DNA of 64,000 bases from Pseudomonas sp. S09G 359. GTDB taxonomy: Bacteria; Pseudomonadota; Gammaproteobacteria; Pseudomonadales; Pseudomonadaceae. A program made the translations under genes and the position numbers. Location: positions 3,253,501 to 3,317,500 of the forward strand of contig NZ_CP025263.1 in NCBI RefSeq assembly GCF_002843605.1. The letters run 5' to 3'. The notes under the pieces are model-generated. The model was not told the DNA's origin, ran no database searches, and saw only the letters and a program-made list of their open reading frames with translations. Below are positions 13,753-29,204 of the stretch, in pieces. Within the stretch, counting starts at the first letter, position 1, and the number at the start of each line of letters is the position of its first letter.

Positions 13753-14214
13753 TCAGATGGGCAATGCCGAGGTCAGCTTGATCGTCTGCATGGGCACTTC
13801 AGTTTTGACACTCTTGACGCCTTTGATCGTTGCCAGGTAGTCACCCTGGAATTTGCGATAGCCGGTCAGGTCACCGGCCACTACCCTGAGCAGGAAATCA
13901 CAGTCGCCCGCCATGAGGTGGCACTCCACCACCTGAGGGAGTTTCAACACCTCTTGGGTAAAGTGATCGACGGTTTCTGCGTCCTGGCCATTCAGCCAGA
14001 TCCGTACAAACACCGTCAGGCCAACATCCAGTTTTTGGGCGTTGAGCAGTGCGACGTAGCGCTCAATGATGCCATTGTCCTCCAGCCACTTCACGCGGCG
14101 CAGGCAGGGCGACGTGGAGAGCCCTACGTGGTCCGCCAGCTCGATATTCTGCATACGCCCGTCGGCCTGCAACGCGCGCAGGATTCTGCGGTCAATTTCG
14201 TCCAGGTTTTTCAT
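13753..14214 (-). CDS. Lrp/AsnC-family transcriptional regulator
   Basis: 153 residues with the standard layout: N-terminal winged helix (LDEIDRRILRALQADGRMQN, then VGLSTSPCLRRVKWLEDNGI) and a C-terminal RAM effector domain (FVRIWLNGQ..., LMAGDCDFLLRVVAGDL). Such proteins form octamers and respond to amino acids. It is 9 bp behind an AraC-type gene on the same strand, so the two are probably co-transcribed. It converges on the oxidoreductase-aminotransferase cluster and is a reasonable candidate for its amino-acid sensor. Confidence 0.93.
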   Translation of the reverse strand: MKNLDEIDRRILRALQADGRMQNIELADHVGLSTSPCLRRVKWLEDNGIIERYVALLNAQKLDVGLTVFVRIWLNGQDAETVDHFTQEVLKLPQVVECHLMAGDCDFLLRVVAGDLTGYRKFQGDYLATIKGVKSVKTEVPMQTIKLTSALPI

Positions 14215-14223
14215 CTCTTCAAC

Positions 14224-15030
14224 TCACCCGTCACACTGTGGAAAGTACCAGCGTGAAGGGGCAATACCGAAACTTCTCTTGAAGTGCCTGGACATATGGC
14301 TCTGGTCAAAAAAGCCCGAATCTATGGCCGCCTTGGACAGCGTCTGGCCGGCCTGCACCAGTTGTTTGACCTGGCTGAGTCGGCGCGCGGTGATGTAACG
14401 GTGGGGGCTGGTGCCAAAGAACACCCGAAAATCTTTGGACAGGCTCCAACGGTCTCGGCCGGCGCAATCCGCGAGTTGGTCGAGGGTGATCGGTCGGTCC
14501 AGGTTGTCGTGGATGTATTCGCGTGCCCGCAGTGCAGCGGCGAAATGGTGGGCAGGGCGTGCCGGACGCTGACCGGTGACGGCGGCGAGGGTCATCACGA
14601 AGTTGAACAGCGCATCGTCTTCTGCCAGGGGGGCGAGTTCATGGGCATGCAGGAGTTCGAATACCGCTGAAACCAGGCGTTGGTCACGGGACACCCCGCT
14701 TTTCAAGAATGGCAACGGCTTGCCCTTGACGATGTGCTGAACCAGCGACGGCGGCACGTAAAGGCCTTGGTAGCGCAAACCCGTGTCCGTTCCAGCGCAG
14801 CCATCGTGCATTTCGTCCGGGTGCAGAATCATTGCCTCGCCGGGGACGCAAACGTTGGACTCGCCGCGGTACTGGAAGCGGTGCGCGCCGTCCAGCGTCA
14901 TGCCGATCGCATAGGTGTCGTGCTGGTGCGCGTCGAACGCATGAGCCACGAAAAACGCCTCGAACCGCTCCAGCGATGAGGTCTGAGGAGCATGTTTAAC
15001 CCAATCTGTTGTCGAGCGTTGATCGTGCAT
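14224..15030 (-). CDS. AraC-family transcriptional regulator (cupin-type sensor)
   Basis: 268 residues. The N-terminal half is a small cupin-like sensor of the AraC_binding type (HAFDAHQHDTYAIGMTLDG, VPGEAMILHPDEMHDG). The C-terminal 100 residues hold the paired helix-turn-helix, including TLDQLADCAGRDRWSLSKDF and SKAAIDSGFFDQSHMSRHFK. It lies directly upstream of the Lrp-type gene and probably forms a two-regulator operon with it. The GlxA-type gene that follows is a separate unit. Target genes are not evident from sequence. Confidence 0.9.
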   Translation of the reverse strand: MHDQRSTTDWVKHAPQTSSLERFEAFFVAHAFDAHQHDTYAIGMTLDGAHRFQYRGESNVCVPGEAMILHPDEMHDGCAGTDTGLRYQGLYVPPSLVQHIVKGKPLPFLKSGVSRDQRLVSAVFELLHAHELAPLAEDDALFNFVMTLAAVTGQRPARPAHHFAAALRAREYIHDNLDRPITLDQLADCAGRDRWSLSKDFRVFFGTSPHRYITARRLSQVKQLVQAGQTLSKAAIDSGFFDQSHMSRHFKRSFGIAPSRWYFPQCDG

Positions 15031-15117: not shown

Positions 15118-16143
15118 CTAGCGTTGTCGATTGCCTGTCGTTGTAGCGAATCGACTGCGGTAGGCCGCTGGTGTCGAACCCACCTGCTGGCGAAAGAGAC
15201 GCGTGAAGGAACTAGCGTTCTGATAACCGACCTGATTGGCGATCTCCTCGATGCTCAAATCGCTGCTTTCGAGCAGGGTCATGGAGATCTCGAGACGCAG
15301 GTTTTGCAAATAGGCTAGGGGTGTTGTGCCCAGCACGCTGTTGAAGTGGCGTATCAGCGTACGTACGCTGACCGACAACGCCGAAGCAAGCTCGGGCAAG
15401 CTGATGTCCTCGGCAAAATGCTTGAGCAGCCAGTGCTGTGCCTTGGCAACCATGGTGTCGCTGTGCACGGTTTCCATCTGCAGGGGCAGATAAGGCAGTT
15501 GAGTGGTCTGGCTGGTGTCGATAAGCATCGTTTTGGCGGTCAGGGTTGCGGTATTCGCGCCGCAGAAATGCTCGACCATCCGTACCCCTTGCAGCAGATA
15601 CGAAGCATTGGCGCCAGCGCACCACAGGCGGTCCTCCTCGGTCACCATCGAGCGCAATTGCAGGTTCACCGCAGGGTGGCGCTCGCGAAACAGCCGCTCC
15701 AGCCACCAGGTAGTTGTGGCCTGACGACCCTGCAACAAGCCGGTCTCGGCGAGCAGGAAGGTGCCTGTGCAATTGGCGGCCAGCACCGCGCCCTCGCGCC
15801 ATTGCGCCTTGAGCCACTCCAACTGCGGTACAGCGCTTTCGAGCATCTGTTCGAAAGCGTCATGCCCCGCGTAGTACAGCCCCGGAATAAAGATCATGTC
15901 GACCTTCTCTTGCGGTAGCGGGGTGGCGATGTTCAACGCCAATCCATTGCATGCCGTGACGGGCTTACCCTTGTTCGACACGAACTGCCAGGAAAAAGGC
16001 CGGGCAATGGCTTTACCGGTCTTGTGTTGCTGGCGACTGAGGTGCGCATTGGTGACATGGAACACGTCGGCGATGCCGGCGAGGCTCGAGGCATAACAGC
16101 CATCGAGAGCCAAAATGGCGACACGTAGCGGGGCGATTTTCAT
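15118..16143 (-). CDS. GlxA-type AraC regulator with DJ-1/PfpI-like sensor domain
   Basis: 341 residues. The first 200 form a class I glutamine amidotransferase-like (DJ-1/PfpI) domain: RVAILALDGCYASSLAG, VDMIFIPGLYYAG and AANCTGTFLLAETGLL, the last with the Cys at the nucleophile elbow. The final 100 residues are an AraC DNA-binding domain (DISLPELASALSVSVRTLIR; SIEEIANQVGYQNASSFTRLF). GlxA-like regulators such as GbdR, ArgR and CdhR usually activate catabolic operons. It is divergent from the flavodoxin-fold reductase gene, and the shared spacer holds one of two copies of a 55-bp element described separately. Confidence 0.93.
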   Translation of the reverse strand: MKIAPLRVAILALDGCYASSLAGIADVFHVTNAHLSRQQHKTGKAIARPFSWQFVSNKGKPVTACNGLALNIATPLPQEKVDMIFIPGLYYAGHDAFEQMLESAVPQLEWLKAQWREGAVLAANCTGTFLLAETGLLQGRQATTTWWLERLFRERHPAVNLQLRSMVTEEDRLWCAGANASYLLQGVRMVEHFCGANTATLTAKTMLIDTSQTTQLPYLPLQMETVHSDTMVAKAQHWLLKHFAEDISLPELASALSVSVRTLIRHFNSVLGTTPLAYLQNLRLEISMTLLESSDLSIEEIANQVGYQNASSFTRLFRQQVGSTPAAYRSRFATTTGNRQR

Positions 16144-16156
16144 AATGGCAAATTAC

Positions 16157-16211
16157 GCATAAAAATAGTCATTAATGCCAATTTAGCACCGCGATCCGCT
16201 TCCGTACAGTG
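16157..16211 (+). promoter_or_regulatory. Conserved 55-bp promoter element, copy A
   Basis: This stretch matches 20055-20109 at 39 of 55 positions with no gap. Shared blocks include GCATAAAAA at the left, GTCA, TGCCAAT in the middle and CGTAC-GTG at the right. The left arm ATTxxGCATAA and right arm TAATGCCAAT form an imperfect inverted repeat. It lies between the GlxA-type regulator gene and the reductase gene, 29 bp before the latter, and is the likely operator/promoter of that unit. Confidence 0.75.
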
Positions 16212-16239
16212 AGCTCATCAGCCATTGACCGGAGCTTTC

Positions 16240-16956
16240 ATGAACGTACTGATTGTCCACGCGCACAACGAACCGCAGTCATTCAACACGGCCATGTTCA
16301 ACCTCGCTGTGGAGGTGCTGAGCGGGCAGGGGCATGAGGTGGACGTGTCTGATTTATACGCGATGAACTTCAACCCTGTCGCCAGCGCCAGCGACTTTGG
16401 CCAGCGCGCCAACAGCGAGCACCTGGTCTACGCCCTGGAGCAGCGCAACGGTTACACCACTGGCACCCTCGCGCCGGACATCCTCGCTGAACTGGAGAAG
16501 ATCAAGCGCGCCGACCTGATCATCTTCAACTTCCCGATCTACTGGTTCAGCATGCCGGCGATCATGAAGGGCTGGTTCGACCGCGTGTTCATTTCGGGGT
16601 ACTGCTATGGCGGTGCGCGCATTTATGACCGCGGCGGCTTGAAAGACAAAAAAGCCATGCTTGCGTTTTCGCTCGGCGGCCAGGACCACATGTTTGGTCC
16701 GGGCGCTGTGCACGGTGAACTGGAAACTTTGTTGCAGCCTATCCAGCGCGGCGTGTTGGGGTATGTCGGCCTTACTGTCTTGCCGCCATTCGTAGCCTTC
16801 CATGTGCCCTATATCAGCCAAGCGGCGCGTGAGGACTACCTGGCGCAGTACCGCGAGCATCTGTTGACCCTGGATCAGCGCGCGCCGCTCGAGTTTCCGT
16901 CGCTGGATGACTACGACGAAATTCTGCGCCCTAAACATTCGACGGCTCACGCATGA
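16240..16956 (+). CDS. Flavodoxin-fold NAD(P)H:quinone oxidoreductase
   Basis: 238 residues from ATG 16240, behind CCGGAGC; an in-frame ATG at 16225 overlaps that region. The start MNVLIVHAHNEPQSFNTAMF and the segment IFNFPIYWFSMPAIMKGWFD are characteristic of the KefF/NQO1-like flavodoxin_2 family, which binds FMN/FAD and reduces quinones or similar acceptors with NAD(P)H. It is the first gene of a unit that continues with a crotonase and an SDR. A paralogue is at 38042. A role in reducing an enone or quinone-like intermediate is possible. Confidence 0.88.
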   Translation: MNVLIVHAHNEPQSFNTAMFNLAVEVLSGQGHEVDVSDLYAMNFNPVASASDFGQRANSEHLVYALEQRNGYTTGTLAPDILAELEKIKRADLIIFNFPIYWFSMPAIMKGWFDRVFISGYCYGGARIYDRGGLKDKKAMLAFSLGGQDHMFGPGAVHGELETLLQPIQRGVLGYVGLTVLPPFVAFHVPYISQAAREDYLAQYREHLLTLDQRAPLEFPSLDDYDEILRPKHSTAHA

Positions 16957-16973
16957 CGGTTGGTGAGGTCGGT

Positions 16974-17789
16974 ATGACGACTCCCTTTAACAACCGTTCA
17001 GGCGTTCAAGTCGAGCGCCTCGGGCTTATCTGTTTCATTACGCTGGATCGTCCCGAGACGGGCAACAGTGTGGATCTGGGCATAGGGCTGGCGTTGAGAG
17101 ATGCGGTGCGCTCGCTGGTTGTGAACCCGCCACGTGTTGTGGTTCTGCGCAGCAGCGGCGCGCACTTCATGGTGGGGGGCGATGTGCGCCGCTTCGAGAC
17201 CTTATTGAGGGTCTCCAGCGAGGCCTGCGCCGATGAGTTGGAAACCCTGATCAGTGCCGTCAACGAAGCGGTAACCGGACTGACGCAATTGCCCTGTCCG
17301 GTGCTGGGTTTGATCAACGGCGCCGCTGCCGGCTTCGGACTGTCGCTGGCCTTGGCGTGCGACATCCTGGTCGCGGCCGACGATGCAAGTTTCCTGATGG
17401 CGTACAGCGCAATCGGTGCAACGCCGGACGGCGGCGGCACCTGGCATCTGCCACGGCAGGTGGGGTTGCATCGAGCCATGGCCATCGCGTTGTTGAATCC
17501 GAAACTGAGCGCCGTTGACGCGAAGGTCGCAGGCCTGGTGATCGAGGTGGTGCCTGGCGAAGAGCTGGCGGCAGCCGGCCTGGCCATCGCCCAACGCTTG
17601 GCCGACGGTCCCGCCGCGGCGCAGGCTGGGATCAAACGCTTGCTGCGTAGCGGCCTGGACGCAAACCTGGAAACGGCCTTGGCAGCCGAAAAGGCCACGT
17701 TCGTGGCGGTATCCGCCAGCGCTGACTTTGCAGAAGGCGTTGCCGCGTTTTGCCAGCGCCGCAAGGCTCAATTTGGTTCGTCCCTTTAA
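16974..17789 (+). CDS. Enoyl-CoA hydratase/isomerase family protein, PaaG-like active site
   Basis: 271 residues from ATG 16974, preceded by GGTGAGG; an alternative ATG at 16953 overlaps the upstream stop by 4 bp. The oxyanion-hole stretches are present (AHFMVGGDV, AAAGFGLSLALACD). The first hydratase Glu is replaced (GLSLA instead of CELA). The second region reads SAIGATPDGGGTWHLPR, which resembles the PDSGGTWxLPR motif of the ring-enoyl-CoA isomerase PaaG, where Asp is catalytic. An isomerase rather than hydratase role is therefore more likely. It is translationally linked to the reductase gene. Confidence 0.85.
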   Translation: MTTPFNNRSGVQVERLGLICFITLDRPETGNSVDLGIGLALRDAVRSLVVNPPRVVVLRSSGAHFMVGGDVRRFETLLRVSSEACADELETLISAVNEAVTGLTQLPCPVLGLINGAAAGFGLSLALACDILVAADDASFLMAYSAIGATPDGGGTWHLPRQVGLHRAMAIALLNPKLSAVDAKVAGLVIEVVPGEELAAAGLAIAQRLADGPAAAQAGIKRLLRSGLDANLETALAAEKATFVAVSASADFAEGVAAFCQRRKAQFGSSL

Positions 17790-17807
17790 TCCCCCACGAG
17801 GTCTTTC

Positions 17808-18575
17808 ATGAGAATCGAAGGTTCTGTTTTCTTCATCACCGGTGGTGCTTCGGGGCTAGGGGCTGCCACCGCCAAGTGGCTGGTGGGATCGGGCGCCCAG
17901 GTGGTGCTGGCTGACCTCAACGAGGTGGCAGGTGAAGCATTGGCGAATGAGTTGGGGCCCGATGCGCTATTCGTGCGCACGGACACGGTGCAAGAGCAAT
18001 CCATGCAAGCGGCCATCGACCTTTCACTCAGCCGGTTCGGCCGTGTAGACGGGCTGATCTGCTGTGCCGGCGTCGCACCTGGGCAGAAGGTGCAGAGTAA
18101 GGCGGGGCCGCATGACCTGGATACCTTTGCGCGCGCAATCACGATCAACCTGGTGGGGACGTTCAACGCCATACGATTGGTCGTAGCGGCCATGAGTAAC
18201 AATGCGCCCAATGGCGATGGCGAGCGCGGCGTGATCATCACCACCGCGTCCGTCGCGGCCTTTGATGGCCAAATCGGCCAGGCGGCCTATGCGGCGTCTA
18301 AAGCCGGTGTAGTGGGTATGACACTGCCGATTGCTCGTGAACTTGCCCGGTTTGGCATTCGGGTGGTGACCATTGCGCCCGGCATCTTCGAAACGCCAAT
18401 GCTGCTTGGACTGCCTCAGGCCGTTCAAGACTCGCTGGGTAAAACAGTGCCATTCCCCCCACGCCTGGGGCGCGGTTGCGAGTACGCGCAATTGGTGGAG
18501 TCGATCGTACTGAACCCGATGCTCAACGGCGAGGTGATACGTCTGGATGGTGCATTACGCATGGCGGCCCAATAA
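17808..18575 (+). CDS. Short-chain dehydrogenase, 3-hydroxyacyl-CoA dehydrogenase type 2-like
   Basis: 255 residues. The NAD-binding motif is [10 protein letters not shown], an acidic residue in ADLNE suggests NAD preference, and ICCAGVAPG replaces the usual NNAG. The catalytic Ser lies in [15 protein letters not shown], followed by YAASK. The sequence resembles HSD10/FadB2x-like enzymes that oxidise 3-hydroxyacyl-CoA, often with branched substrates. It lies 18 bp behind the crotonase gene, so reductase, isomerase and dehydrogenase form one unit. Confidence 0.9.
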
Positions 18576-18588
18576 GGAGTTACTCACG

Positions 18589-18600
18589 TTTCAATTGAAA
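18589..18600. promoter_or_regulatory. 12-bp perfect palindrome before the porin gene
   Basis: TTTCAATTGAAA is a perfect palindrome, 13 bp after the SDR stop and about 130 bp before the porin start. It may be an operator for the porin transcript; no matching copy was noticed elsewhere in the window. Confidence 0.35.
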
Positions 18601-18728
18601 TTCTGAACAGAAAGTTTGAATGAATTTGGTGGCGTTGGGCGTTATCCCGGCGGCGCTGAAGTGTGCGTCACAGTCGAAAAAAATAAAAAACAGCAATAAC
18701 AATAACAATAGCGAAAGGTAGACTAACC

Positions 18729-19994
18729 ATGCAATTCAACTTCGGTACAGTTATGCCCGTCCTGTGCGCCAGCGCAGTCCTGGGTATGGTCGGATCGGCA
18801 CGTGCAGACTTCCTGGGGGACAGCAAATCCACCCTGGAACTGCGTAACTTCTATATGAACCGTGACTTCCGCCAGGCCGGCGCGGCGCAGAATAAAGCGG
18901 AGGAATGGGCTCAGGGATTCATGTTGCGCCTTGAATCCGGTTACACCGAGGGGCCGGTAGGTTTCGGTATTGATGCCATCGGGATGCTGGGGCTGAAACT
19001 CGACTCCAGCCCAGATCGGGTTGGCACCGGCCTGCTCAAGACCAATGCGGTCGGGCCCAAGCGGGCCAAGGATGAATATGGCGAGTCAGGCTTTACTGCC
19101 AAGGTACGTATCTCCAAGAGCACCTTGAAGCTCGGCACTCTCCAGCCGGTGTTGCCGCCTTTGATGCGCAATGACTCACGTCTTATGCCGCAGACCTTTC
19201 GCGGGGCCTGGTTGGCCAGTAACGAGATCGAGGGTTTAAATCTTGATCTGGGCCGCCTTGATCGGGTCAATCAGCGCGACTCTTCGGACAACGAAGTGAT
19301 GACAGTCTTCAATGGCGGCAAGCGCAATATAGTGCTCGGAAGTGCCAAAACCAGTGATGAATTTCTGTTTGGTGGGGGTCGCTATCAATGGAATCCGACA
19401 CTTTCCACCAGTTATTACTATGGCGGCCTTGATGGCATCTACATACAACACTTGATCAATCTTGTGCATCAATTACCGTTGGCGGGCGGGCAAAGTCTTA
19501 AGTCCGATATCCGATTTGCACACTCTGGTGCCGACGGCGGAAGTAACGTGGACAACGATGCTTTGGGCGCCTTGTTTACCTACAAAATGCTTGGGCATAG
19601 CTTCAGCGCCGGCTACCAGCACCTCAGCGGTCGCACCGGTTTCGCCTACGTCAATGGCGCGGACGATGCCTTGCTCAATCAGGTGCAGATCAATGACTTC
19701 GGCAACCGCGATGAGCACTCGTGGCAGGTGCGTTACGACTATGACTTCGCCGCGTTGGGCTTTCCAGGGCTAACCCTGATGACCCGCTATCTGTCGGGTG
19801 ACAACGTGGACCGAGGGGCCGGGCTGAGCGAAGGCAAAACCTGGGAGCGCAACACCGACCTGGGGTACGTCATTCAAAGCGGGCCGCTGAAAAACCTGGC
19901 GTTGAAGCTGCGTAACGCCACCACCCGCAGCAACTTCCTGAATGATCTGGATGAAAACCGCCTGATCGTCGGCTACAGCTTGCCACTCTGGTAA
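18729..19994 (+). CDS. OprD-family outer-membrane porin
   Basis: 421 residues. An N-terminal signal peptide (about residues 1-26, ending GSARA before DFLGDSK) precedes an 18-strand-type barrel. The body has [30 protein letters not shown] and the C-terminal YSLPLW with a terminal aromatic residue for BAM recognition. OprD proteins are substrate-specific channels for carboxylates and amino acids. The gene lies between two catabolic units under the same apparent GlxA-type control, so it is a likely uptake channel for the acid they activate. AGCGAAAGG stands before the start. Confidence 0.93.
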
Positions 19995-20054
19995 GTCCTG
20001 AATCATCGCAGCCTGGCGCATGGCCAGCAGGGAATGGCTGGCTTGGCGAAATTG

Positions 20055-20109
20055 GCATAAAAAACGTCAGTATTGCCAATGTGCCAGCGCTGCCGACTCT
20101 CGTACTGTG
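20055..20109 (+). promoter_or_regulatory. Conserved 55-bp promoter element, copy B
   Basis: This is the second copy of the element at 16157-16211 (39 of 55 identical, gapless). Here the inverted repeat is clearer: ATTGGCATAA at 20051-20060 against TATTGCCAAT at 20071-20080. The conserved CGTACTGTG at the right end could contain the -10 region. It ends 40 bp before the acyl-CoA synthetase start. Confidence 0.75.
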
Positions 20110-20149
20110 CAAAAGGGCACAGCGGCACATCAATGTTGAGAAAGACACG

Positions 20150-21835
20150 ATGAACACAATAAAAAGAAGTTATTCGCGTGGCGCGATTCACACTCCGTTG
20201 ATTGAGAAAACCCTGGGGGATTTCTTTGACGAGGTGGTCGCACGATTTCCCGATAATGAGGCGCTTGTTTCGTGTCATCAGAGTATCCGGCTCAGCTATT
20301 CGCAACTTCAAGCCGAAGTAAACCAACTGGCGAGTGCGCTGCTTGCGTTGTCACTTGTGCCGGGTGATCGTGTGGCTATCTGGGCCAACAACAGCGCCGA
20401 ATGGCTGATAACCCAACTGGCGACAGCCAAGGTCGGTATCATCCTGGTCAACTTCAACCCGGCCTATAAAACCATCGAGCTTGAGTACGCGCTGAATAAG
20501 GCGGGCTGCAAGGCATTGATCACTATGGCCGCGTTCAAGACTACTGATTACCTGCAAGTGATCAGAACCATTGCGCCGGAAATCCACACATCTACACCTG
20601 GACAGCTCAGTGCTGCGAGGTTGCCCGCACTGCATGCGGTCATTCACCTGGGCGAAGAACACGTGCCCGGGTTTATGCGTTTTCGCGATCTGATGAGTCT
20701 GGGAAATGCCTTGGATGAACATGTCCCGCGTGTCGCCGCGACGCTGAAGAACACTGATGCGATCAACATCCAATTCACCAGCGGCACCACGGGCTCTCCA
20801 AAGGGCGCAGCGCTGACCCATCGCGGCATTCTCAACAATGGCTTTTTTCTCGGCGAAGGCATGAGCCTGACTGCCACCGATCGCCTGTGCATTCCGGTGC
20901 CTTTGTTTCATTGCTTTGGCATGGTGGTTGGCAACCTGGCGGCATTGACCCATGCCAGCACCATCGTCTATCCCAACGATGCGTTTGACCCGGTGCGTAC
21001 CCTTGAGGCCGTACAGAGTGAGCGCTGCACCGCCCTGCACGGTGTGCCGACGATGTTCATCACCGAACTCGACCACCCCCGCTTTCACGAATTCGACCTG
21101 TCCACCTTGCGCACCGGCATCATGGCCGGCACGGCTTGCCCGATTGAGGTGATGCGCCGGGTTCAGCGCGACATGCATATGCGCGATGTCACTATTGCCT
21201 ACGGCATGACCGAAACCAGCCCGGCCAGCTACCAAAGCACCTGTGAAACGCCGCTGGAAAAACGCGTGTCGACCATCGGCAAAGTCCACCCCCACCTGGA
21301 AGCCAAGGTGGTCCACCCGGAGTCGGGAGACACCTTGCCGATCGGCGTCGTGGGGGAGTTGTGTATCCGTGGTTATTCGCTGATGCAAGGCTACTGGAAC
21401 GACCCGGAAAAGACTGTGCAGACCATCGACAGCGACGGCTGGATACACAGCGGAGACTTGGCCACGATGGATGCCGAGGGCTACGTCAGCATCACCGGGC
21501 GTATCAAGGATATGGTGATACGCGGCGGCGAAAATATTTCCCCGCGCGAGATCGAGGAGTTCCTGTATCAACACCCGGCGATTCAGGATGCGCAGGTGAT
21601 CGGCGTGGCAGATGAGAAATACGGCGAGGAGCTCTGCGTTTGGGTGATCGTGCGCCCGGGCCTGGCGATCAGCGAAGACGAGATACGCGAGTTCTGCAGC
21701 AGCCAGATCGCCCGTTACAAGATCCCGCGCTATATACGCTTCGTCGACGGCTTCCCAATGACGCTCTCCGGCAAGGTACAGAAGTTCAGGATGCGCGAAA
21801 TCATGGAAGAAGAGCTTACCCTGGCGGTGTGCTAG
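20150..21835 (+). CDS. AMP-forming acyl-CoA synthetase
   Basis: 561 residues from ATG 20150; a longer frame from 20081 would begin inside the promoter element. The family motifs are complete: P-loop [27 protein letters not shown], the hinge [35 protein letters not shown], and the C-terminal catalytic Lys in [11 protein letters not shown]. The enzyme activates a carboxylic acid to its acyl-CoA via the acyl-AMP. It heads a unit with a crotonase and an amidohydrolase. A paralogue with the same motifs is at 30250-31953. Confidence 0.93.
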
Positions 21836-21894
21836 AGCGCCGCCCACATTTACTCATGCGCCGCTTCATAGGCGCCACCGATAAGGAATGAACC

Positions 21895-22665
21895 ATGGCA
21901 TGGCAGATTGAAGTGATTGAAGGGTGTGCGGTTGTGCGCATGAATACCAACAAGGTCAATGTGCAGAACGACACCTTCTTCAAGGACCTGCATGACGCGT
22001 TTGATCGGCTCGAAACCGAGTTCAGCGAGTTGCCGGTGATTCTGACCGGGCAGGGCAATGCCTTTTCAGCCGGTATCGACTTCAAGTACAGCTTTGATGT
22101 ATTTGGCAGCCAGAACAAAGAGCGGATCCGCCAGTGGTACGCCGAATACCGCGCGACCAACCTGCGTATTTTCCAGTACCCGCGCCCCACCGTGGCAGCG
22201 ATCAACGGGCATGCTATTGCCGGTGGCCTGATCACGGCCTTGGATTGCGACTTTCGTATCGCCGCTCGCAAAGACGCCAAGTTCGGCTTGAACGAAGTGC
22301 CTATCGGCATTCCGATGCCTGCCGCGTATGTGGAAATCATCAAGTATGCGCTGGGCAATCAGGTCGGCGCGCTGACCACCCTCAAGGGTGAGCTCTATTC
22401 GCTGGAGCAGGCCGAGAAGCTCGGGTTCTTCCATGAGGTAGTGGAGGAATCGCAACTGCTGGCCACCGCGATTGCCTATGCGCGATGCATCACGCCCGAT
22501 TGCAACGTGGCGTATGCGATGTCCAAGAAAGCCTTGCAGGATTCGGTCATGCAGCAGATTGACCTGCGTACTACGCTGCTCGACCAGGAACTGCCCACCG
22601 GCATGAGCGATGCAGGTAATCGCCGGGCCCAGGACAAGCGTCGCCGGGAAATCATGGGCGAATAA
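21895..22665 (+). CDS. Enoyl-CoA isomerase-type crotonase
   Basis: 256 residues, much diverged from the other crotonases here. It has NAFSAGIDFKYSF (CoA/oxyanion loop) and HAIAGGLITALDCDFRIA, which lacks the first hydratase Glu. The second site KFGLNEVPIGIPMP keeps a Glu. A single Glu at that position is typical of delta3-delta2-enoyl-CoA isomerases. The gene follows the acyl-CoA synthetase by 59 bp with AAGGA before the start. It may shift a double bond in the activated substrate. Confidence 0.85.
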   Translation: MAWQIEVIEGCAVVRMNTNKVNVQNDTFFKDLHDAFDRLETEFSELPVILTGQGNAFSAGIDFKYSFDVFGSQNKERIRQWYAEYRATNLRIFQYPRPTVAAINGHAIAGGLITALDCDFRIAARKDAKFGLNEVPIGIPMPAAYVEIIKYALGNQVGALTTLKGELYSLEQAEKLGFFHEVVEESQLLATAIAYARCITPDCNVAYAMSKKALQDSVMQQIDLRTTLLDQELPTGMSDAGNRRAQDKRRREIMGE

Positions 22666-22678
22666 GAGAAAGAACATC

Positions 22679-23509
22679 GTGGAAATTATCGACGCCTGGA
22701 TGCAGTTTCCCAACAAGCGCTTTTTGCAGGACCCGATGTTTGATTCTCTGCGGCGCTGGCCCACGGCGTGGAAGGTGCTAGCCGAGAACAGTCCTGACAT
22801 TACCTCGGCGCAAGTGCTTGAAACGCTCCAGAAAGAGGGCGTATCGAAGGTCTTCGCCAGTGCCTGGTGGGGACCTGCGGGGCCGATGATCACTAACGAA
22901 GAAGTGGCGGCGGCCGTCACGGCGCAGCCTGAGCGAGTCATTGGCGTGGCATCGGTAGACCTGAGCCGGCCGATGGAGGCGGTCAGGGAACTGCGCCGTT
23001 GCGCCCGCCAGTATGGTTTCAAGGCGTTGCGCGTATTGCCATGGCTTTGGGGCCTGCCGCCTGATGACCGCCGTTACTACCCGCTGTATGCCGAGTGCAT
23101 CGAGCTGGATATCACCTTCTGTCTGCAAGTAGGCCACGCGGGCCCTATGCGCCCGTCGGAGCCAGGGCGCCCGATGCCTTATCTGGATAACGTGGCGCAT
23201 GAGTTTCCTGAGCTGCGCATCGTCGGCGGGCATATCGGCTTTCCGTGGGTGGCCGAAATGATTTCCTTGATGATGAAGCATCCGAATGTCTACGTGGATA
23301 CATCAGCCTACAAGGCTTCGCGGTTTCCTGCGGAGCTGGTGGCGTATATGCGTGGAGCGGGGAAGAGAAAGGTCTTGTTTGGCACCAATTACCCGATGCT
23401 GACTGCCGCTGATTGTTTACAAGGGCTGCAAGCGTTGAACCTGGAGGAAGATGTACAGCGCTGTTTCCTGGCAAACAATGCGCGCCGGGCGTTCAAGTTG
23501 CCCGGCTAA
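22679..23509 (+). CDS. Amidohydrolase-family (TIM-barrel) protein with altered metal site
   Basis: 276 residues from GTG 22679, preceded by AAGAGAAAG; an ATG at 22610 lies inside the upstream gene. The amidohydrolase_2 fold is recognisable (VGHAGPMRPSEPG, LRIVGGHIGFPWVAEM, NVYVDTSAYKA, VLFGTNYPML). The N-terminal metal motif, normally D-x-H-x-H, reads IIDAWMQFP, and the late Asp is replaced by Asn in GTNYPM. The protein may act without a metal or with a different one. Relatives include ACMSD-like decarboxylases and lactone hydrolases. It is coupled to the isomerase gene. Confidence 0.82.
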   Translation: MEIIDAWMQFPNKRFLQDPMFDSLRRWPTAWKVLAENSPDITSAQVLETLQKEGVSKVFASAWWGPAGPMITNEEVAAAVTAQPERVIGVASVDLSRPMEAVRELRRCARQYGFKALRVLPWLWGLPPDDRRYYPLYAECIELDITFCLQVGHAGPMRPSEPGRPMPYLDNVAHEFPELRIVGGHIGFPWVAEMISLMMKHPNVYVDTSAYKASRFPAELVAYMRGAGKRKVLFGTNYPMLTAADCLQGLQALNLEEDVQRCFLANNARRAFKLPG

Positions 23510-23521
23510 AGAGTCAAACAG

Positions 23522-24319
23522 TCATTTACCCAGCATGCGCCTTGCCGAGGTCAGTACGGGTGCATCGATCATTCTCCCTTCAAAGGAAAACGCCCCGCCG
23601 TGCTGCTTTGCCGCCTCGAGCACGCGCTCTGCCCAGGCTTGCTCGTGTGCTGAGGGTATGAAGATACTGTCAACCTGCTCGACCTGTTTAGGGTGCAGGC
23701 AGAGCATGCCGGCGAAGCCCAGATCCTTTGAGGCGGTCGCAAAGGCGCTAAGGCCCTCCATATCACTTAGCACGGGGTAAACCGTGTCGACGGGCGGTTC
23801 CAGGCCATTGAGTGCGCTGTGCAATAGCAGCGCATAACGAACCTGGTCGAAGATCCTGTGACTGCTGGGCGAGTAGGCATTGATACCGAGCTGGATAGCC
23901 AGATCCAATACGCCAAACACCAAGCGCTCGATGCCTTTGCAGGTCGCTGACTCGGGGAGTGTCAAAAGGCCTTGAGGTGTTTCTATCAGTGGCCAGATTT
24001 TGCGGCAGGTATCAGCGACTTCTTCCAGCTGTTTAAGGCTTTCGGCCTTTGGCACCATGACACCAGCCAGGTGGGGGTGAGCCCGGCACAACGCCAGGTC
24101 CTGTTTATAAGCCTCATCGCCATTTGAGTTGATCCTGACCATCACATTTTGATGACGCGTCTGCGCCAAATACCGATCAGCATTTTCGCGCGCCTGGTCC
24201 TTATGCTGTGGCTCAACGGCATCTTCCAGGTCGATGACGACGCGGCCTGCGCCTGTCGCTATAGCTTTTTCGAAGCGTTCCGGCCTGTCCCCAGGCACAA
24301 ATAACACAGTCCTAATCAT
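23522..24319 (-). CDS. CitE-like HpcH/HpaI-family lyase
   Basis: 265 residues from ATG 24319 (MIRTVLFVPGDRPERFEKAI), preceded on the minus strand by GGGAGCC; a start at 24361 adds an unsupported 14 residues. The fold is that of citrate lyase beta/malyl-CoA lyase: VVIDLEDAVEPQHKDQAR with the metal-binding acidic residues, VMVRINS with the substrate Arg, and IETPQGLL with the catalytic-site Glu. Members cleave or hydrolyse 3-hydroxyacyl-CoA such as malyl-, citramalyl- or methylmalyl-CoA. It is the last gene of the TetR-linked minus-strand operon, and could release pyruvate, glyoxylate or acetyl-CoA at the pathway end. Confidence 0.87.
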   Translation of the reverse strand: MIRTVLFVPGDRPERFEKAIATGAGRVVIDLEDAVEPQHKDQARENADRYLAQTRHQNVMVRINSNGDEAYKQDLALCRAHPHLAGVMVPKAESLKQLEEVADTCRKIWPLIETPQGLLTLPESATCKGIERLVFGVLDLAIQLGINAYSPSSHRIFDQVRYALLLHSALNGLEPPVDTVYPVLSDMEGLSAFATASKDLGFAGMLCLHPKQVEQVDSIFIPSAHEQAWAERVLEAAKQHGGAFSFEGRMIDAPVLTSARRMLGK

Positions 24320-24374
24320 AGGGGGCTCCCGCGGCAGGCATTGCACTGAAAAGTGCAACACCTGCAGGTAGTGA

Positions 24375-25952
24375 TTAACGATTCAGATCGAGATTCTTGG
24401 TTTCACGTATGTAGATAAAACCAACGATGCAGGTGAGCGCCGCTACGCCGATGGGGTAGTAAAGCCCCGCATAAACATTGCCTGTCCACAGCACCAGCCA
24501 AGATGAGATCAGCGGCAGGAAGCCACCGAAGCAGCCATTCCCCAAGTGATAGGGCAATGACATGGAGGTGTAGCGAATGCGTGCAGGGAACAACTCGACC
24601 AGGAAGGCGGCCATGGGGCCATACACCATGGTGACGTACGTCATCAACAGCACCAGCAGCAGCAACATCATCGGCTTGTTGACCTGGGCCGGGTCCGCAG
24701 CGCCCGGGTAACCGGCACTGGCTAACGCCGCTGTCAGTGTCGGCTTGTCGGGCGCGGTCAAATTAAGGTCGCCGATGGAAATAGCGACACTGTTGTTTGC
24801 CTCTATCACCGTACGATAGGGCACACCACGCGCCGACAGTTCATTGCGGATGGCATCGCAGTTATTGCAGTTTTCTGGGGCGGTAAGGATTACAGGGGTG
24901 GTAGCAATAGCCGCTTCCAAGGCGGGGTTGCCGTAGTGCATCAGCCCCTTGTAGATAGGCATGAAGGTCAGTGCCCCCAAGAGGCAGCCGGCAAGAATAA
25001 TCGGCTTTCTACCGACCTTATCCGATAGGTATCCGAAGAACACGAAGAGCGGGGTTCCGATGACCAATGCCAACGCGACCAGCATGGTGGACAGGCCAAA
25101 CTCGATCTTCAGGATACTTTGCAGAAAGAACAGGGCGTAAAACTGCCCGGTGTACCAAACGACCGCTTGTCCGGCAATGGCGCCCAACAATGCAATGAAC
25201 ACCAGGCGCAGGTTTTTCGAGTCGCCAAAGCTTTCCTTCACCGGGTTGGCCGATAACTTGTGCTCGGCCTTCATCTTGAGAAAAACCGGGGATTCGCTGA
25301 GTGTCATGCGGATATAGACCGAGACCATCAGCAGCACCAGCGACAGCAGGAATGGAATACGCCACCCCCACGCACGGAATTCCTCCTCACCCAGCAGTGA
25401 CCGACAGGTAAGAATGACGCCAAGTGACAGCAAGAACCCGATGGTTCCTGTGGTCTGGATCCAACTGGTGCGAAAGCCACGCTTCTTCGCAGGTGCGTGT
25501 TCGGCGACGTAAATGGCGGCACCGCCATATTCGCCGCCCATGGCCAGGCCCTGGATCAGTCGAAGGAGCACTAACAGGATCGGCGCGAGAATACCGACTT
25601 GTTCGTAGGTCGGCAGGACACCCACCAAGGCGGTAGACAAGCCCATGATTACAATGGTGGCGAGGAAGGTTTTTTTGCGGCCGAACAGGTCGCCAAGGCG
25701 CCCGAATATGATTGCGCCTACAGGCCTGATGGCAAACCCGGCGCCAAAAGTAGCCAGGCTGGCCAACAGGGCTGCTGTTTCGTTGCCTTTCGGAAAGAAT
25801 AACGAGCCGAAGAACACGGCGAGGCTTCCGTACAAGTAGAAGTCATACCATTCGAATACAGTCCCCAGTGACGAGCCTAGTATCACTCGCCGTTCTTCTT
25901 TGGGGGTGGTGGTGTGCGTTGTGTGAGAGTCTGTATCGATTGCAGTAGCCAT
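24375..25952 (-). CDS. MHS-family MFS transporter with CxxC-containing insert
   Basis: 525 residues from ATG 25952, where GGTGA has six-base spacing; ATG 25958 is the next alternative. The MHS signatures are clear: GTVFEWYDFYLYG, AIRPVGAIIFGRLGDLFGRK and GLAMGGEYGGAAIYVAEH. Between the C-terminal-half helices there is an extra soluble segment of about 90 residues containing APENCNNCDAIRNELSARGV, resembling a small glutaredoxin-like unit with a C-N-N-C pair. Most MFS proteins lack this. It lies 55 bp before the CitE-like gene and probably imports the pathway substrate. Confidence 0.9.
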   Translation of the reverse strand: MATAIDTDSHTTHTTTPKEERRVILGSSLGTVFEWYDFYLYGSLAVFFGSLFFPKGNETAALLASLATFGAGFAIRPVGAIIFGRLGDLFGRKKTFLATIVIMGLSTALVGVLPTYEQVGILAPILLVLLRLIQGLAMGGEYGGAAIYVAEHAPAKKRGFRTSWIQTTGTIGFLLSLGVILTCRSLLGEEEFRAWGWRIPFLLSLVLLMVSVYIRMTLSESPVFLKMKAEHKLSANPVKESFGDSKNLRLVFIALLGAIAGQAVVWYTGQFYALFFLQSILKIEFGLSTMLVALALVIGTPLFVFFGYLSDKVGRKPIILAGCLLGALTFMPIYKGLMHYGNPALEAAIATTPVILTAPENCNNCDAIRNELSARGVPYRTVIEANNSVAISIGDLNLTAPDKPTLTAALASAGYPGAADPAQVNKPMMLLLLVLLMTYVTMVYGPMAAFLVELFPARIRYTSMSLPYHLGNGCFGGFLPLISSWLVLWTGNVYAGLYYPIGVAALTCIVGFIYIRETKNLDLNR

Positions 25953-26076
25953 TGTCATTCACCGTGTTTTACGGATGAGCTCCCACAGCCCTCCTGGCTA
26001 ACGTGTGCGTTGACCGAGACGGCTGTAGCGAGCCTGAGAAGTTTTTTATTGTTTAGGCTAGTGACGAGCAGAAGTG

Positions 26077-26850
26077 TTAGAGGAGGGTAGTGCCACCATC
26101 CACCATCAACGTCTGACCAGTAACGAAACCGCTGCCTTCGCTGGCGAGGAAGATGACCGCACCGACGACGTCATCCGGTGTCAGGTTGCCCTTGAGGCTC
26201 TGACCCGACTTGATAGCGTCTGTAGCTTTGTCCAGCTTGTCGTCGAAGAACTGGCTGGTGGCCTCGGTCAGTACCAGGCTCGGCGCGATGCTGTTTACAC
26301 GGATCCAGTGGCGGCCGACTTCACGGGCCAAACCACGGGTAATACCAATGACGGCTGCTTTGGAAGCGGTGTAGTGCAGGGCATAGGGCATGCCGTAGAC
26401 CGCGGCCAGTGACGCGATGTTGATGATACTGCCGCCGCCGGCCGCTTTCATCGAAGGGAATACGGCTTTGGAGCAATTCCAGACACCCTTTACGTTGACA
26501 TTCATGCAGCGGTCCCAGATGTCCGGATCGATGTCCGTGAACGGCGTATTTTTGAGGTCGGCCCACAAGGCTGCATTGTTGACCAAGACGTCGATCTTGC
26601 CGAAGCGTTCAACGGCAGCCTCTGCCATCTTCTGAGTGCTGGTCGCGTCTGCGACGTCTACTTTTACCGTCAGAAAGGGAATATTTTCCTTGGCCAGAAG
26701 ATTTTCGGACTCTACACAGTCATTGAAGTCTGCCAGGACAATGTTGGCGCCCAAGCGGCCCAGTTCCAGCGCATAGGTTTGACCTAGCCCACGGGCAGCG
26801 CCAGTGATGATGATGGTTTTACCGGTCATGTTGTTGGTGTTTTTAGTCAT
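26077..26850 (-). CDS. Short-chain dehydrogenase/reductase
   Basis: 257 residues of classical SDR. It has TIIITGAARGLGQTYA (cofactor), LADFND (acidic residue suggesting NAD), DVLVNNAALWAD, and the active site IINIASLAAVYG with YTASK. VTGQTLMVDGGTTLL closes the protein. It oxidises a hydroxyl or reduces a ketone; the substrate is unknown. It lies 24 bp behind the crotonase gene and 118 bp before the transporter on the same strand. A second in-frame ATG seven codons in is possible. Confidence 0.92.
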   Translation of the reverse strand: MTKNTNNMTGKTIIITGAARGLGQTYALELGRLGANIVLADFNDCVESENLLAKENIPFLTVKVDVADATSTQKMAEAAVERFGKIDVLVNNAALWADLKNTPFTDIDPDIWDRCMNVNVKGVWNCSKAVFPSMKAAGGGSIINIASLAAVYGMPYALHYTASKAAVIGITRGLAREVGRHWIRVNSIAPSLVLTEATSQFFDDKLDKATDAIKSGQSLKGNLTPDDVVGAVIFLASEGSGFVTGQTLMVDGGTTLL

Positions 26851-26874
26851 GATAATTACCTCTTATTGGATGAG

Positions 26875-27672
26875 TTATTGACGCGCGCCGAAACGGGAGA
26901 TGCCGTTTTCAAGTTCTTCTGAGTGAACCGTGCTGTTCCAGAGGGTGTTTTCCATCCATAGCCCGTCCTGCAGCGGTCGACCCAGGCCGCGCAGTACCGA
27001 CTCTTTATCAGTGCGCAGCGAGGCTTGCGGGAGTGCGGCAATTTGCCTGGCGTATTCCAGGGCCTTGTCCAACAAGGCTTCACGGGGGACAACCTGATTT
27101 AGGAAGTTGATGCGCAGGGCTTCTTCAGCGGTGAATTGCCGACCGCTGAGAATCAAGTCCAGCGCATTGCCCAGGCCGACGATATGCGGCAGACGTTGAG
27201 TCAGGCCCGACTCGCAACCGATATCCCAGCGCCTGTTCAGCACACCAAACTGGGCTTCGGGCACTGAAAATCGAATGTCGCAGGCCATGGCCAGTTCCAT
27301 TCCGCCTGCGAGGCAATACCCGTTGATCGCGGCGATGATGGGCTTGTACACCTCGACGCCACGGGTCAGACCGCCGAGCCCTGGCTCATAGGCGGCGCGT
27401 TCACGCAGGTCGTTCAAACTCAGGGTGGAGGTACGTTTCGCGTAACCTTTGATGTCCCAACCCGAACAAAAAGACTTCTCGCCAGCCCCTGTCAGCACCG
27501 CTACGTTCAGCTCCGGGTCCTTACGAAATTTCACCCAGGCTTCACACAACCCTTCGTGGACCGCTTCATCGATGCAATTTTCGCGGTTGGCGTTATTAAT
27601 CGTGATTAGCACGACGCCGCCGGCTTGTTTTTCGTACCGGACAGCTGCCGGCAGTTCATTTGGCTGAATCAT
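26875..27672 (-). CDS. Enoyl-CoA hydratase/isomerase family protein
   Basis: 265 residues. The loop KSFCSGWDIKGYAKR and the site YCLAGGMELAMACDI, with the first catalytic Glu, fit crotonases. In the second site the usual Glu-containing PEI/L segment reads NRRWDIGCESGLTQRL, with D or E nearby rather than at the standard place. A hydratase, lyase or isomerase role is possible. It follows the aldehyde dehydrogenase gene by 9 bp. A retro-aldol hydratase-lyase followed by aldehyde oxidation, as in ferulate degradation, is one possible logic but the sequence is not the known Ech. Confidence 0.87.
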   Translation of the reverse strand: MIQPNELPAAVRYEKQAGGVVLITINNANRENCIDEAVHEGLCEAWVKFRKDPELNVAVLTGAGEKSFCSGWDIKGYAKRTSTLSLNDLRERAAYEPGLGGLTRGVEVYKPIIAAINGYCLAGGMELAMACDIRFSVPEAQFGVLNRRWDIGCESGLTQRLPHIVGLGNALDLILSGRQFTAEEALRINFLNQVVPREALLDKALEYARQIAALPQASLRTDKESVLRGLGRPLQDGLWMENTLWNSTVHSEELENGISRFGARQ

Positions 27673-27681
27673 GGTCCGCTC

Positions 27682-29169
27682 CTAGCGAATACGCGCCCAA
27701 GTGGTTTTGAGGTCGGTAAATTTCTCCAGACCCTGGATACCTTTGTCGCGACCAAATCCAGATTGTTTGAACCCACCAAACGGAACACCGAAGTCGATTT
27801 CGTTGAAGCAATTGATCCAGACAGTGCCTGCCTTGACTCCTCGGGACACTCGGTGTGCCTTGTTGATGTCGTTAGTCCAGACAGAGGCGGCCAGGCCGTA
27901 AGGGGTGTCGTTGGCCAGCGGCAGAATTTCGCTTTCTTCGTCGAACGAAATGACCGACAGGACAGGGCCAAAGACCTCTTCCTGGGCAATCGTCATGGAC
28001 GGCAGTACATCGTCGAACAACGTTGGCCTCAGGTAGTAGCCACCGCTATCAACAAGGCTGCGTTCGCCGCCACAACGCAGGGTGGCGCCGTCGCGTTGAG
28101 CGCCTTCGATATAGCCACACACGCGTGAAAGTTGTTTTTGGCTGACGATGGCGCCCAGACGGGTCTGCGGATCCAAAGGGTCACCAGGGACCAGGCGGCT
28201 GGCGGACGCAATGATCTTGTCCACCAGCTCATCCTTGATTTTTCGATCAACGATTAGCCGTGAGCCTGCGTAACAGACCTGGCCTTGGTTGGTGTAGATA
28301 CCGAATGTAACGGCTTTGGCCACCTCATCCAGATTGGTGAAGTCGGACAGCACGACTTGAGGGCTTTTGCCGCCACACTCCAAGCTCAGTCGCTTCATGT
28401 TGGACTGGCCTGCGTACTGCAGAAATTTTTTGCCGACGTCGGCAGAACCCGTGAAGGAGATGAAGTCTACATCTGGGTGCAGACCAAGGGCCTGGCCTGC
28501 TTCGGCGCCGCCAGGAATGACGTTGAATACGCCTTCCGGAATACCTGCTTCCAAGGCAAGCGCTGCGAGGCGTAGAGCGGTAAACGGAGCTTCTTCAGAA
28601 GGCTTCAACACCACTGAGTTGCCGGTGGCCAGGGCCGGGGCGATGCGCCATACCGCAAGCAGCAGGGGGTAGTTCCATGGGGTGACCACACCCACGACGC
28701 CCAGAGGTTCGCGAGTAATGGTTGCAACGACGTCCTGAGCGGTAGGCGCAACCTGGTCGTAAAGCTTGTCGACTGCTTCCGCGTTCCAGACGAAGCAGGC
28801 GATTGATGCCGGAATATCAACGGTTGTGGTGTCACGAATGGGCTTGCCAACCGCCAAGGACTCTAGCAGTGCCAGTTCATCGGAATGTTTGCGCATCAAT
28901 TCAGCCAGCGCCAGTAGACGACGCTTGCGTTGGGTCGGCGCCATCCGACGCCAGGTGCCTGCTTCATAGGCATGACGCGCCGCCTTGACGGCTGCATCCA
29001 CTTCCCGTTCGCCGCAGGCGGAGACTTCCACCAGTGCTTGGCCATTGGCCGGGTTGATACAGAGCGAGGTTTTTTCCGCACGCACGTGCTGCGTTCCGAT
29101 AACGGCATCCGTTGGTAGCACCAGCGCTGCAGCCCGTTCATGCCAATTCACGTCAACATTCTTATTCAT
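27682..29169 (-). CDS. NAD(P)-dependent aldehyde dehydrogenase
   Basis: 495 residues from ATG 29169 (MNKNVDVNWHERAA); ATG 29184 is also in frame. The family features are complete: VVTPWNYPLLLAVW, FTGSADVGKKF, LSLECGGKSPQ with the general-base Glu, NQGQVCYAGSRL with the nucleophile Cys, and EEVFGPVLSV. It oxidises an aldehyde to the acid. It is the first gene of the minus-strand operon and has a 16-bp palindromic element 36-51 bp upstream that matches one at the divergent synthetase/hydratase promoter. Confidence 0.94.
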   Translation of the reverse strand: MNKNVDVNWHERAAALVLPTDAVIGTQHVRAEKTSLCINPANGQALVEVSACGEREVDAAVKAARHAYEAGTWRRMAPTQRKRRLLALAELMRKHSDELALLESLAVGKPIRDTTTVDIPASIACFVWNAEAVDKLYDQVAPTAQDVVATITREPLGVVGVVTPWNYPLLLAVWRIAPALATGNSVVLKPSEEAPFTALRLAALALEAGIPEGVFNVIPGGAEAGQALGLHPDVDFISFTGSADVGKKFLQYAGQSNMKRLSLECGGKSPQVVLSDFTNLDEVAKAVTFGIYTNQGQVCYAGSRLIVDRKIKDELVDKIIASASRLVPGDPLDPQTRLGAIVSQKQLSRVCGYIEGAQRDGATLRCGGERSLVDSGGYYLRPTLFDDVLPSMTIAQEEVFGPVLSVISFDEESEILPLANDTPYGLAASVWTNDINKAHRVSRGVKAGTVWINCFNEIDFGVPFGGFKQSGFGRDKGIQGLEKFTDLKTTWARIR

Positions 29170-29204
29170 CGTATGTCTCGTCATTCTGTGAAGGTCGACG
29201 AAAA

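What the first reader, a model, noticed from the sequence alone, without database searches (positions are those of the whole stretch)
16157..20109. A 55-bp gapless promoter repeat ties two catabolic units to one GlxA-type regulator
The segments 16157-16211 and 20055-20109 agree at 39 of 55 positions without a gap, although they precede unrelated genes (reductase; acyl-CoA synthetase). Shared blocks are GCATAAAAA, GTCA, TGCCAAT and CGTAC-GTG. Copy B shows an inverted repeat ATTGGCATAA / TATTGCCAAT. Copy A lies in the spacer of the GlxA-type gene. This implies one regulon covering about 16.2-18.6 and 20.1-23.5 kb, with the OprD porin between. Identity is seen; the regulator link is inference.
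Basis: partly seen in the sequence, partly recalled or inferred. Interest (0 to 1): 0.72.

Follow-up and report, generated by a model that had tools for sequence, protein, structure and literature searches.

The report
Shared activator site at two promoters
Two promoters of a breakdown-gene cluster in a Pseudomonas carry the same control site at the same distance from the likely start of transcription, and comparison with relatives ties that site to the regulator gene next door; this is a normal kind of gene control, unusually easy to read from the sequence alone.

Summary
In detail: 39 of 55 positions agree without a gap; the next best 55-mer in the window scores 30. The repeat is the downstream part of a longer element: a 37-bp site (A 16145-16181, B 20043-20079), then exactly 23 bp, then a -10-like box (TACAGT 16205-16210, TACTGT 20103-20108). 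A pattern of the site with up to 3 mismatches finds only A and B in the 6.77-Mb genome. Of the six other genomes carrying an orthologue (at least 83%) of the GlxA-type regulator, five have two matches and one has three. Degenerate forms of the site lie at or up to about 32 bp before the start codon of 27-53% identical homologues. In 57 homologue rows, orthologues included, TAnnnT stands exactly 23 bp beyond the located site in 29; other distances average 0.41, maximum 3. The AraC-type gene beside the regulator is not found near four orthologous clusters that keep both sites. Best reading: an AraC-type activator binding at about -72 to -36, next to a poor -35, switching on both units and probably restraining its own gene. 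Binding, inducer and substrate are untested.

The parts
15118..16143 (-). GlxA-type regulator: DJ-1/PfpI-like N-terminal domain plus AraC-type double HTH, 341 aa
   Evidence: Pfam PF01965 4.9e-08, PF12833 9.8e-25; best solved relative AdpA 3w6v 1.1e-16, over the HTH part
16145..16181 (+). Site A, 37 bp, one base from the regulator's start codon; reads toward the reductase unit
16182..16187 (+). -35 position of promoter A (TTTAGC, poor match)
   Evidence: 17 bp upstream of the -10-like box (sequence); inference
16205..16210 (+). -10-like box TACAGT of promoter A, 23 bp after the site
   Evidence: the same in L015-L020; fixed distance across homologues
16240..16956 (+). NQO1/NQO2-like flavodoxin-fold quinone reductase
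   Evidence: PF02525 7.2e-50; 1qrd 3.9e-57
16953..17789 (+). Enoyl-CoA hydratase/isomerase family protein
   Evidence: PF00378 1.7e-45
17808..18575 (+). Short-chain dehydrogenase
   Evidence: PF00106 1.5e-45
18729..19994 (+). OprD-family porin, between the two units, no site of its own
   Evidence: PF03573 3.2e-145; no site
20043..20079 (+). Site B, 37 bp
20103..20108 (+). -10-like box TACTGT of promoter B, 23 bp after the site
20150..21835 (+). Acyl-CoA synthetase (AMP-binding)
   Evidence: PF00501 2e-93; NCBIfam NF009233 854.5 bits, cut-off 832
21895..22665 (+). Crotonase/enoyl-CoA hydratase family protein
   Evidence: PF00378 2.2e-35
22610..23509 (+). Amidohydrolase-2 family protein (start uncertain; 278 of 299 residues align in L017 and L018; no match in L019)
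   Evidence: PF04909 3.4e-42

Best explanation
Sites A and B are binding sites of the neighbouring GlxA-type (GATase-1-like AraC family) regulator. It binds as a dimer over about -72 to -36 of each catabolic promoter, directly against a poor -35, and with its inducer helps RNA polymerase start from the -10-like box 23 bp further on. Both units are thereby switched on together, OprD by read-through from unit A. Because site A ends one base before the regulator's own start codon, the same binding probably limits the regulator's own expression. Shown by sequence comparison: the sites, their uniqueness in the genome, their conservation, the fixed spacing, and the link to the regulator. Inferred: binding itself, activation, dimer geometry, autorepression, read-through, inducer.
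For: The pattern (22 defined positions, up to 3 mismatches) gives only A and B in the own genome; two hits in G398, G399, G400, G401 and G403, three in G402 (all carry the orthologue); none in 4 genomes with a roughly 50% homologue; reversed control 0 in all 11. Of 199 genus genomes, matches with at most 2 mismatches occur in 3: the own genome, G151 (same contig number and coordinates as the L017 genome) and G179 (likewise the L015 genome). The footprint is kept in L015-L020. With a matrix made from A/B only, the best-scoring place of the locus is at the regulator start in 13 of 21 loci of 27-53% homologues; column-shuffled matrices give mean 1.5, maximum 5 in 200. Sites located by inner columns only have complementary outer arms in 197 of 312 cells, against 21-29% at shifts of 1-3. 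TAnnnT at exactly 23 bp in 24 of 36 sites with at least 4 of 6 outer pairs, and in 29 of all 57; other distances mean 0.18 and 0.41, maximum 3. The AraC-type gene beside it gave no match in the L017-L020 loci.
Against: No binding, start-site or expression data. Residues co-varying with the site's bases include many outside the HTH, so protein-site co-variation is confounded by descent. L015 has 22, not 23, bp between site A and the -10-like box. 21 of 57 homologue rows did not show at least 4 of 6 outer pairs, and only 5 of those 21 have TAnnnT at 23 bp. In one search, 8 of 21 loci had their best place elsewhere. Spread is narrow: seven genomes, about four lineages. In 23 of the 28 loci scanned there is no convincing second linked site, so copy B is particular to this cluster.
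Confidence: 0.83

Rival explanations
1. The GlxA-type protein binds A and B, but mainly as a repressor relieved by a substrate, not as an activator.
For: Site A lies one base from the regulator's start codon; in homologues L084-L088, L090, L092 and L095 a promoter-like element of the regulator gene (TGACN, 17 bases, CATTWA) runs into the operator (read by eye), which suits repression of the regulator's own gene.
Against: On the catabolic side the site stays upstream of the -10-like box at a fixed 23 bp over a poor -35, the place of an activator and not of a block.
Confidence: 0.12
2. Another regulator (the AraC-type 14224-15030, the AsnC-type 13753-14214, or an unlinked one) binds the sites, and the GlxA-type gene is a bystander.
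For: Both other regulators lie just downstream of the GlxA-type gene in the window, L015 and L016; L019 has a 37% AsnC-type match.
Against: The AraC-type gene was not found in the loci L017-L020, nor the AsnC-type in L017, L018 and L020, though these clusters keep both sites. The site travels with GlxA-type genes in distant homologues.
Confidence: 0.05
3. The repeat is a passive duplication remnant carried along with neighbouring genes.
For: Duplication does occur: in G402 a second OprD gene with a copy of site B but no -10-like box and no synthetase behind it (L061).
Against: The flanks of A and B are unrelated. Box positions are kept while the DNA between and around them changed. Spacing to the -10-like box is kept in other homologues' loci.
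Confidence: 0.03

Closest known systems
CdhR / GbdR / SouR / ArgR of Pseudomonas aeruginosa (PMC5806209, passages read)
   Same: CdhR and GbdR are AraC-family regulators of the GATase-1-like subfamily; CdhR is divergent from the catabolic operon it controls; paired half-sites repeating at 21 bp (6-bp GGTCGC plus 15-bp spacer). Our site also shows a 21-bp direct register.
   Different: CdhR is described as class I, binding direct repeats upstream of the promoter, and as enhancing its own expression (its authors also propose inhibition without carnitine). Here the site abuts the -35 position and the regulator's start codon, and its outer boxes pair as inverted arms.
AdpA of Streptomyces (consensus TGGCSNGWWY; PMC8653842, PMC4021200, PMC3411110, passages read)
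   Same: AraC-type regulator with a TGGC-led box; its HTH domain is the best solved relative of our regulator (3w6v). An inverted two-box site type for AdpA is recalled, not seen in a call.
   Different: AdpA is a pleiotropic regulator with degenerate sites, up to five per promoter between -260 and +60; here only two strong sites in the genome at one fixed position.
GliR (PA3027) of P. aeruginosa (PMC8151288, passages read)
   Same: Motif A YYGGCGHTDTYSGMC resembles one half-site here (TTGGCGAAATTGGCA); it lies upstream of or over the -35; regulator gene divergent from its target cluster.
   Different: Single motifs and 24 ChIP-seq sites; no 37-bp double site with fixed -10 distance was described in the passages read.
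E. coli AraC at araI1-I2 (recalled)
   Same: Two half-sites at 21-bp spacing covering roughly -72 to -35 and touching the -35.
   Different: Direct repeats plus a looping site; different sensor domain.

Membership tests
GATase-1-like AraC family regulators (GATR) | DJ-1/PfpI-like N-terminal domain joined to an AraC-type double HTH | tested here: met
   PF01965 and PF12833 above cut-off
GATase-1-like AraC family regulators (GATR) | Gene divergent from or beside the catabolic genes it controls | tested here: met
   Divergent arrangement in the window and L015-L020; that it controls them is inferred
CdhR/GbdR type (direct repeats of GGTCGC, 15-bp spacer) | Two GGTCGC half-sites at 21-bp period | tested here: not met
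   21-bp register present (0.52 identity against 0.16-0.37 in 31 non-orthologous rows) but boxes are TGGC/AGTC, not GGTCGC, and outer arms pair inversely
AraC-type class II activation | Site directly against or over the -35 at fixed distance from the -10 | tested here: met
   Site ends 23 bp before the -10-like box in A, B and in 19 of 31 non-orthologous dyad rows; activation itself not tested
AraC-type class II activation | Regulator needed for transcription with inducer | not testable with these tools
   Needs deletion and reporter assay
FtrA and GbdR named families | NCBIfam equivalog cut-off | tested here: not met
   FtrA 141.9 bits of 425 needed; GbdR 110 of 480

The most novel reading that the evidence does not exclude
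A promoter grammar shared by a large branch of GlxA-type regulators: a 37-bp site at or shortly before the regulator's own start codon, four boxes that read both as a 21-bp direct repeat and as inverted outer arms whose bases change together, and a -10 exactly 23 bp beyond it on the divergent side. If true, the site and the first target of any such orphan regulator can be read off the bases before its start codon, and further regulon members found by scanning for that site.
Probability: 0.6. Interest if true: 0.55.

Novelty: new member of a known kind. Interest (0 to 1): 0.42.

Why it matters
GlxA-type regulators are numerous: 13 matches at E up to 1e-12 in this genome, the regulator itself and one HTH-only match included. 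Here a site, its two likely targets and its exact position are defined, giving two directly testable promoters. The same architecture in distant homologues suggests a way to find the target of many orphan regulators from sequence.

Tried and rejected
Searches used a pattern with 7 instead of 8 free positions (my error); their zero counts carry no information and were replaced. The first own-genome pattern (TGGCATAAAAANNGTCA, up to 3 mismatches: 107 matches, 76 in the reversed control) was too loose. A relaxed 18-base pattern gave 21 matches against 7 in the control, but only A and B at 0 mismatches and the next three at 2, so no further convincing regulon member. A pattern for the downstream half was wrongly spaced too, since it failed to find A and B in the window, and carries no information.

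Protein-site co-variation was meant as a direct test of the regulator link; residue 264 (in the recognition helix, by recall of the fold) ranks high, but so do residues outside the HTH, so descent is not separated and it is not used as evidence. Direct-repeat and inverted-repeat readings of the site were both tested: both signals are there, and the dimer geometry is left open. In one search all inverted spans tried (29 to 45) were raised to some degree (z 2.0 to 7.0), so that call alone does not define the dyad; direct periods 21 and 30 stood out (z 7.2 and 9.8).

Rows dropped before the counts: L031 (match begins at residue 80), L033 (no ATG found near the expected start), L038-L046 (weak or partial matches), own-genome paralogues L065-L068 and L070-L073 (match begins far from the N-terminus), L015 and L018 (near copies of rows kept), and all homologues beyond the 29 new loci returned. 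Start codons were taken as the ATG (or else GTG/TTG) nearest the expected place. L077's site was set by hand. L003's site was located off register and so fell out of the 36. Four loci (L109, L111, L112, L115) were left out's 32, leaving 28. The 'other distances' left out 22 bp as well as 23; one search put 22 back in (count 0).

Paper searches showed in their listings no title or abstract start describing this architecture; only listings, and passages of six papers, were seen, and most subscription papers are not held.
Full report
Check of the observation. The two 55-base segments agree at 39 positions without a gap; on either strand of the 64-kb window no other ungapped 55-mer exceeds 30. The identity drops outside the segments, except that a TTGGC-type box lies 12 bases before each. 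The window belongs to a 6.77-Mb single-contig genome. Its nearest named relatives are two records labelled Pseudomonas viridiflava: L015 (regulator 99.7% identical, short contig) and L016 (98.5%).

Genes. The regulator at 15118-16143 (-) joins a DJ-1/PfpI-like domain to an AraC-type double HTH; its best solved relative is the DNA-binding part of AdpA. Unit A is an NQO-like quinone reductase, a crotonase and a short-chain dehydrogenase; OprD follows; unit B is an acyl-CoA synthetase, a crotonase and an amidohydrolase-2 protein. The substrate cannot be named from these; a carboxylic acid activated to a CoA ester is likely (inference).

Orthologous clusters. A pattern-based scan of one genome each for 84,980 species returned 32 loci, six of them with at least 83% identical regulators, all Pseudomonas (L015-L020). 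L016-L020 hold the arrangement, L019 without a match to the amidohydrolase; L015's contig ends within the first crotonase. In 149 genus genomes, only the own genome has a match better than the roughly 50% level; four others have such 50% homologues. The AraC-type and AsnC-type genes next to the regulator occur in the window, L015 and L016; the 20-kb loci L017-L020 gave no match to the AraC-type and only a 37% AsnC-type match in L019.

Footprint. Aligning the two promoters across these loci shows one element: TTGGCrAAAnnnGCA, eight variable bases, GTCAaTAntGCCAAT, then a variable stretch and TACAGT or a close variant. Written as 37 bp, A is 16145-16181 and B 20043-20079, and the -10-like hexamers follow after exactly 23 bp at 16205-16210 and 20103-20108.

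Genome-wide uniqueness. With up to 3 mismatches in 22 defined positions the own genome has only A and B. Five of the six other carriers also have two and G402 has three, while the reversed pattern gives none. Four genomes with a roughly 50% homologue have none. In 199 genomes of the genus, 12 have a match, but matches with at most 2 mismatches occur in three: the own genome and two that correspond by contig and position to the genomes of L017 and L015. The other nine have only 3-mismatch matches, against three genomes for the reversed control; two of these (G180, G060) look like related sites. The third G402 site lies behind a second OprD gene, with no -10-like box and no synthetase: a duplication remnant.

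The site follows the regulator. A matrix built only from A and B copies places its best hit of the locus at the regulator start in 13 of 21 loci with 27-53% homologues; 200 column-shuffled matrices give a mean of 1.5 and a maximum of 5. Reading the bases shows the site ending at the start codon, overlapping it by two bases, in Variovorax (L024, L026), Mesorhizobium (L023), Bradyrhizobium (L032) and Arenimonas (L037). Over the 36 rows with at least 4 of 6 outer pairs the site ends between 2 bases inside and 32 bases before the start codon.

Symmetry. When sites in 52 non-orthologous homologues are located by the inner 25 columns alone, the outer six columns on either side are complementary in 197 of 312 cells, against 21-29% when shifted by 1 to 3. 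Bases change together (columns 4/34: GC 14, TA 13; columns 6/32: AT 16, GC 8, CG 6, TA 4). In the 31 non-orthologous rows with at least 4 of 6 outer pairs, the sites also repeat directly at 21 bp (0.52 identity, other registers 0.16-0.37). Both are real, partly because TGSCA is nearly its own complement; I do not decide between head-to-head and head-to-tail dimers. The homologues are related, so these counts are not independent events.

Position. For the 36 of 57 sites with at least 4 of 6 outer pairs, TAnnnT stands exactly 23 bp beyond the site on the divergent side in 24 (19 of 31 without orthologues); other distances from 5 to 49 average 0.18 and reach 3 at most. Without that selection it is 29 of all 57, others averaging 0.41, maximum 3; among the 21 rows that fail the outer-pair test it is 5. 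The -10 played no part in locating the sites. If the hexamer is at -12 to -7, the site covers -72 to -36 and touches a poor -35 (TTTAGC in A, TGTGCC in B). This is the place of an activator that contacts polymerase; recalled AraC geometry at araI is the same. The general promoter scan of 16000-24000 found three consensus-like promoters, no more than in shuffled sequence (mean 3.9). None uses the -10-like boxes named here, although one (16118-16146, +) runs into the first two bases of site A. That suits activator-dependent promoters but proves nothing.

Own gene. Site A ends one base from the regulator's ATG. In one branch of homologues (L084-L088, L090, L092, L095) a TGACN-17 bases-CATTWA element of the regulator gene runs into the operator (read by eye). 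Autorepression is therefore likely but inferred; CdhR, a known relative, is reported to enhance its own expression.

Second copy. In 28 loci with a usable site, only the window and L016, L017, L019 and L020 carry a second linked copy (23-29 of 37 matches). The other 23 have best second matches of 20-24, where the best of 30 shuffled queries reach 22-25; L106, L116, L120 and L032 exceed their shuffled maxima by 1 or 2. In L017 the second copy itself scores only 23, level with its shuffled maximum, and is recognised by the footprint. Recruitment of the synthetase unit through copy B is thus a feature of this cluster, not of the family.

Verdict. As biology it is a well-built case of a known kind, an AraC-type local regulon. 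The wider layout shared by homologues is the more interesting part and deserves a phylogeny-aware test.

Noticed in passing
L017 7799-9166, L020 7827-9188 (window equivalent: junction at 16953-16956): Between the reductase and the first crotonase, L017 and L020 have two more open frames (by eye from their translations: a GST-like and a DsbA/2-hydroxychromene-2-carboxylate-isomerase-like protein; names recalled, not searched); L018 and L019 have a gap of about the same size. The window, L015 and L016 lack them.
   Followed up: partly
L061 1500-1536 (G402): Third copy of the site behind a second OprD gene (81.9% nucleotide identity to the cluster's OprD in the same genome), followed by no -10-like box and no synthetase: a duplication remnant.
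   Followed up: yes
window 13753-15030: AraC-type and AsnC-type regulator genes downstream of the GlxA-type gene are shared with L015 and L016; the L017-L020 loci gave only a 37% AsnC-type match in L019.
   Followed up: partly
window 23522-29184: Convergent minus-strand genes (CitE-like lyase, MFS transporter, SDR, crotonase, aldehyde dehydrogenase) look like another CoA-ester pathway without the site; the lyase and transporter follow the cluster in L016 but were not seen in L017-L020, whose loci end 0.9-1.9 kb beyond the last cluster gene matched.
   Followed up: no
L063 and L064 (own-genome paralogues): Two of four own-genome GlxA-type paralogues whose starts were read also have a TTGGC-led double box directly before the ATG.
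   Followed up: partly
G180 (L129) and G060:C3:186718-186754: Single matches with 3 mismatches that look like true relatives of the site, not chance; neighbouring genes not read.
   Followed up: no
G000:C1:2705819-2706715 (L066): A GlxA-type paralogue whose match contains an in-frame stop; possible pseudogene.
   Followed up: no
L017 106-801, L018 110-805: A second NQO-like gene, 46-47% identical to the unit A reductase, stands beyond the amidohydrolase in these two loci.
   Followed up: no
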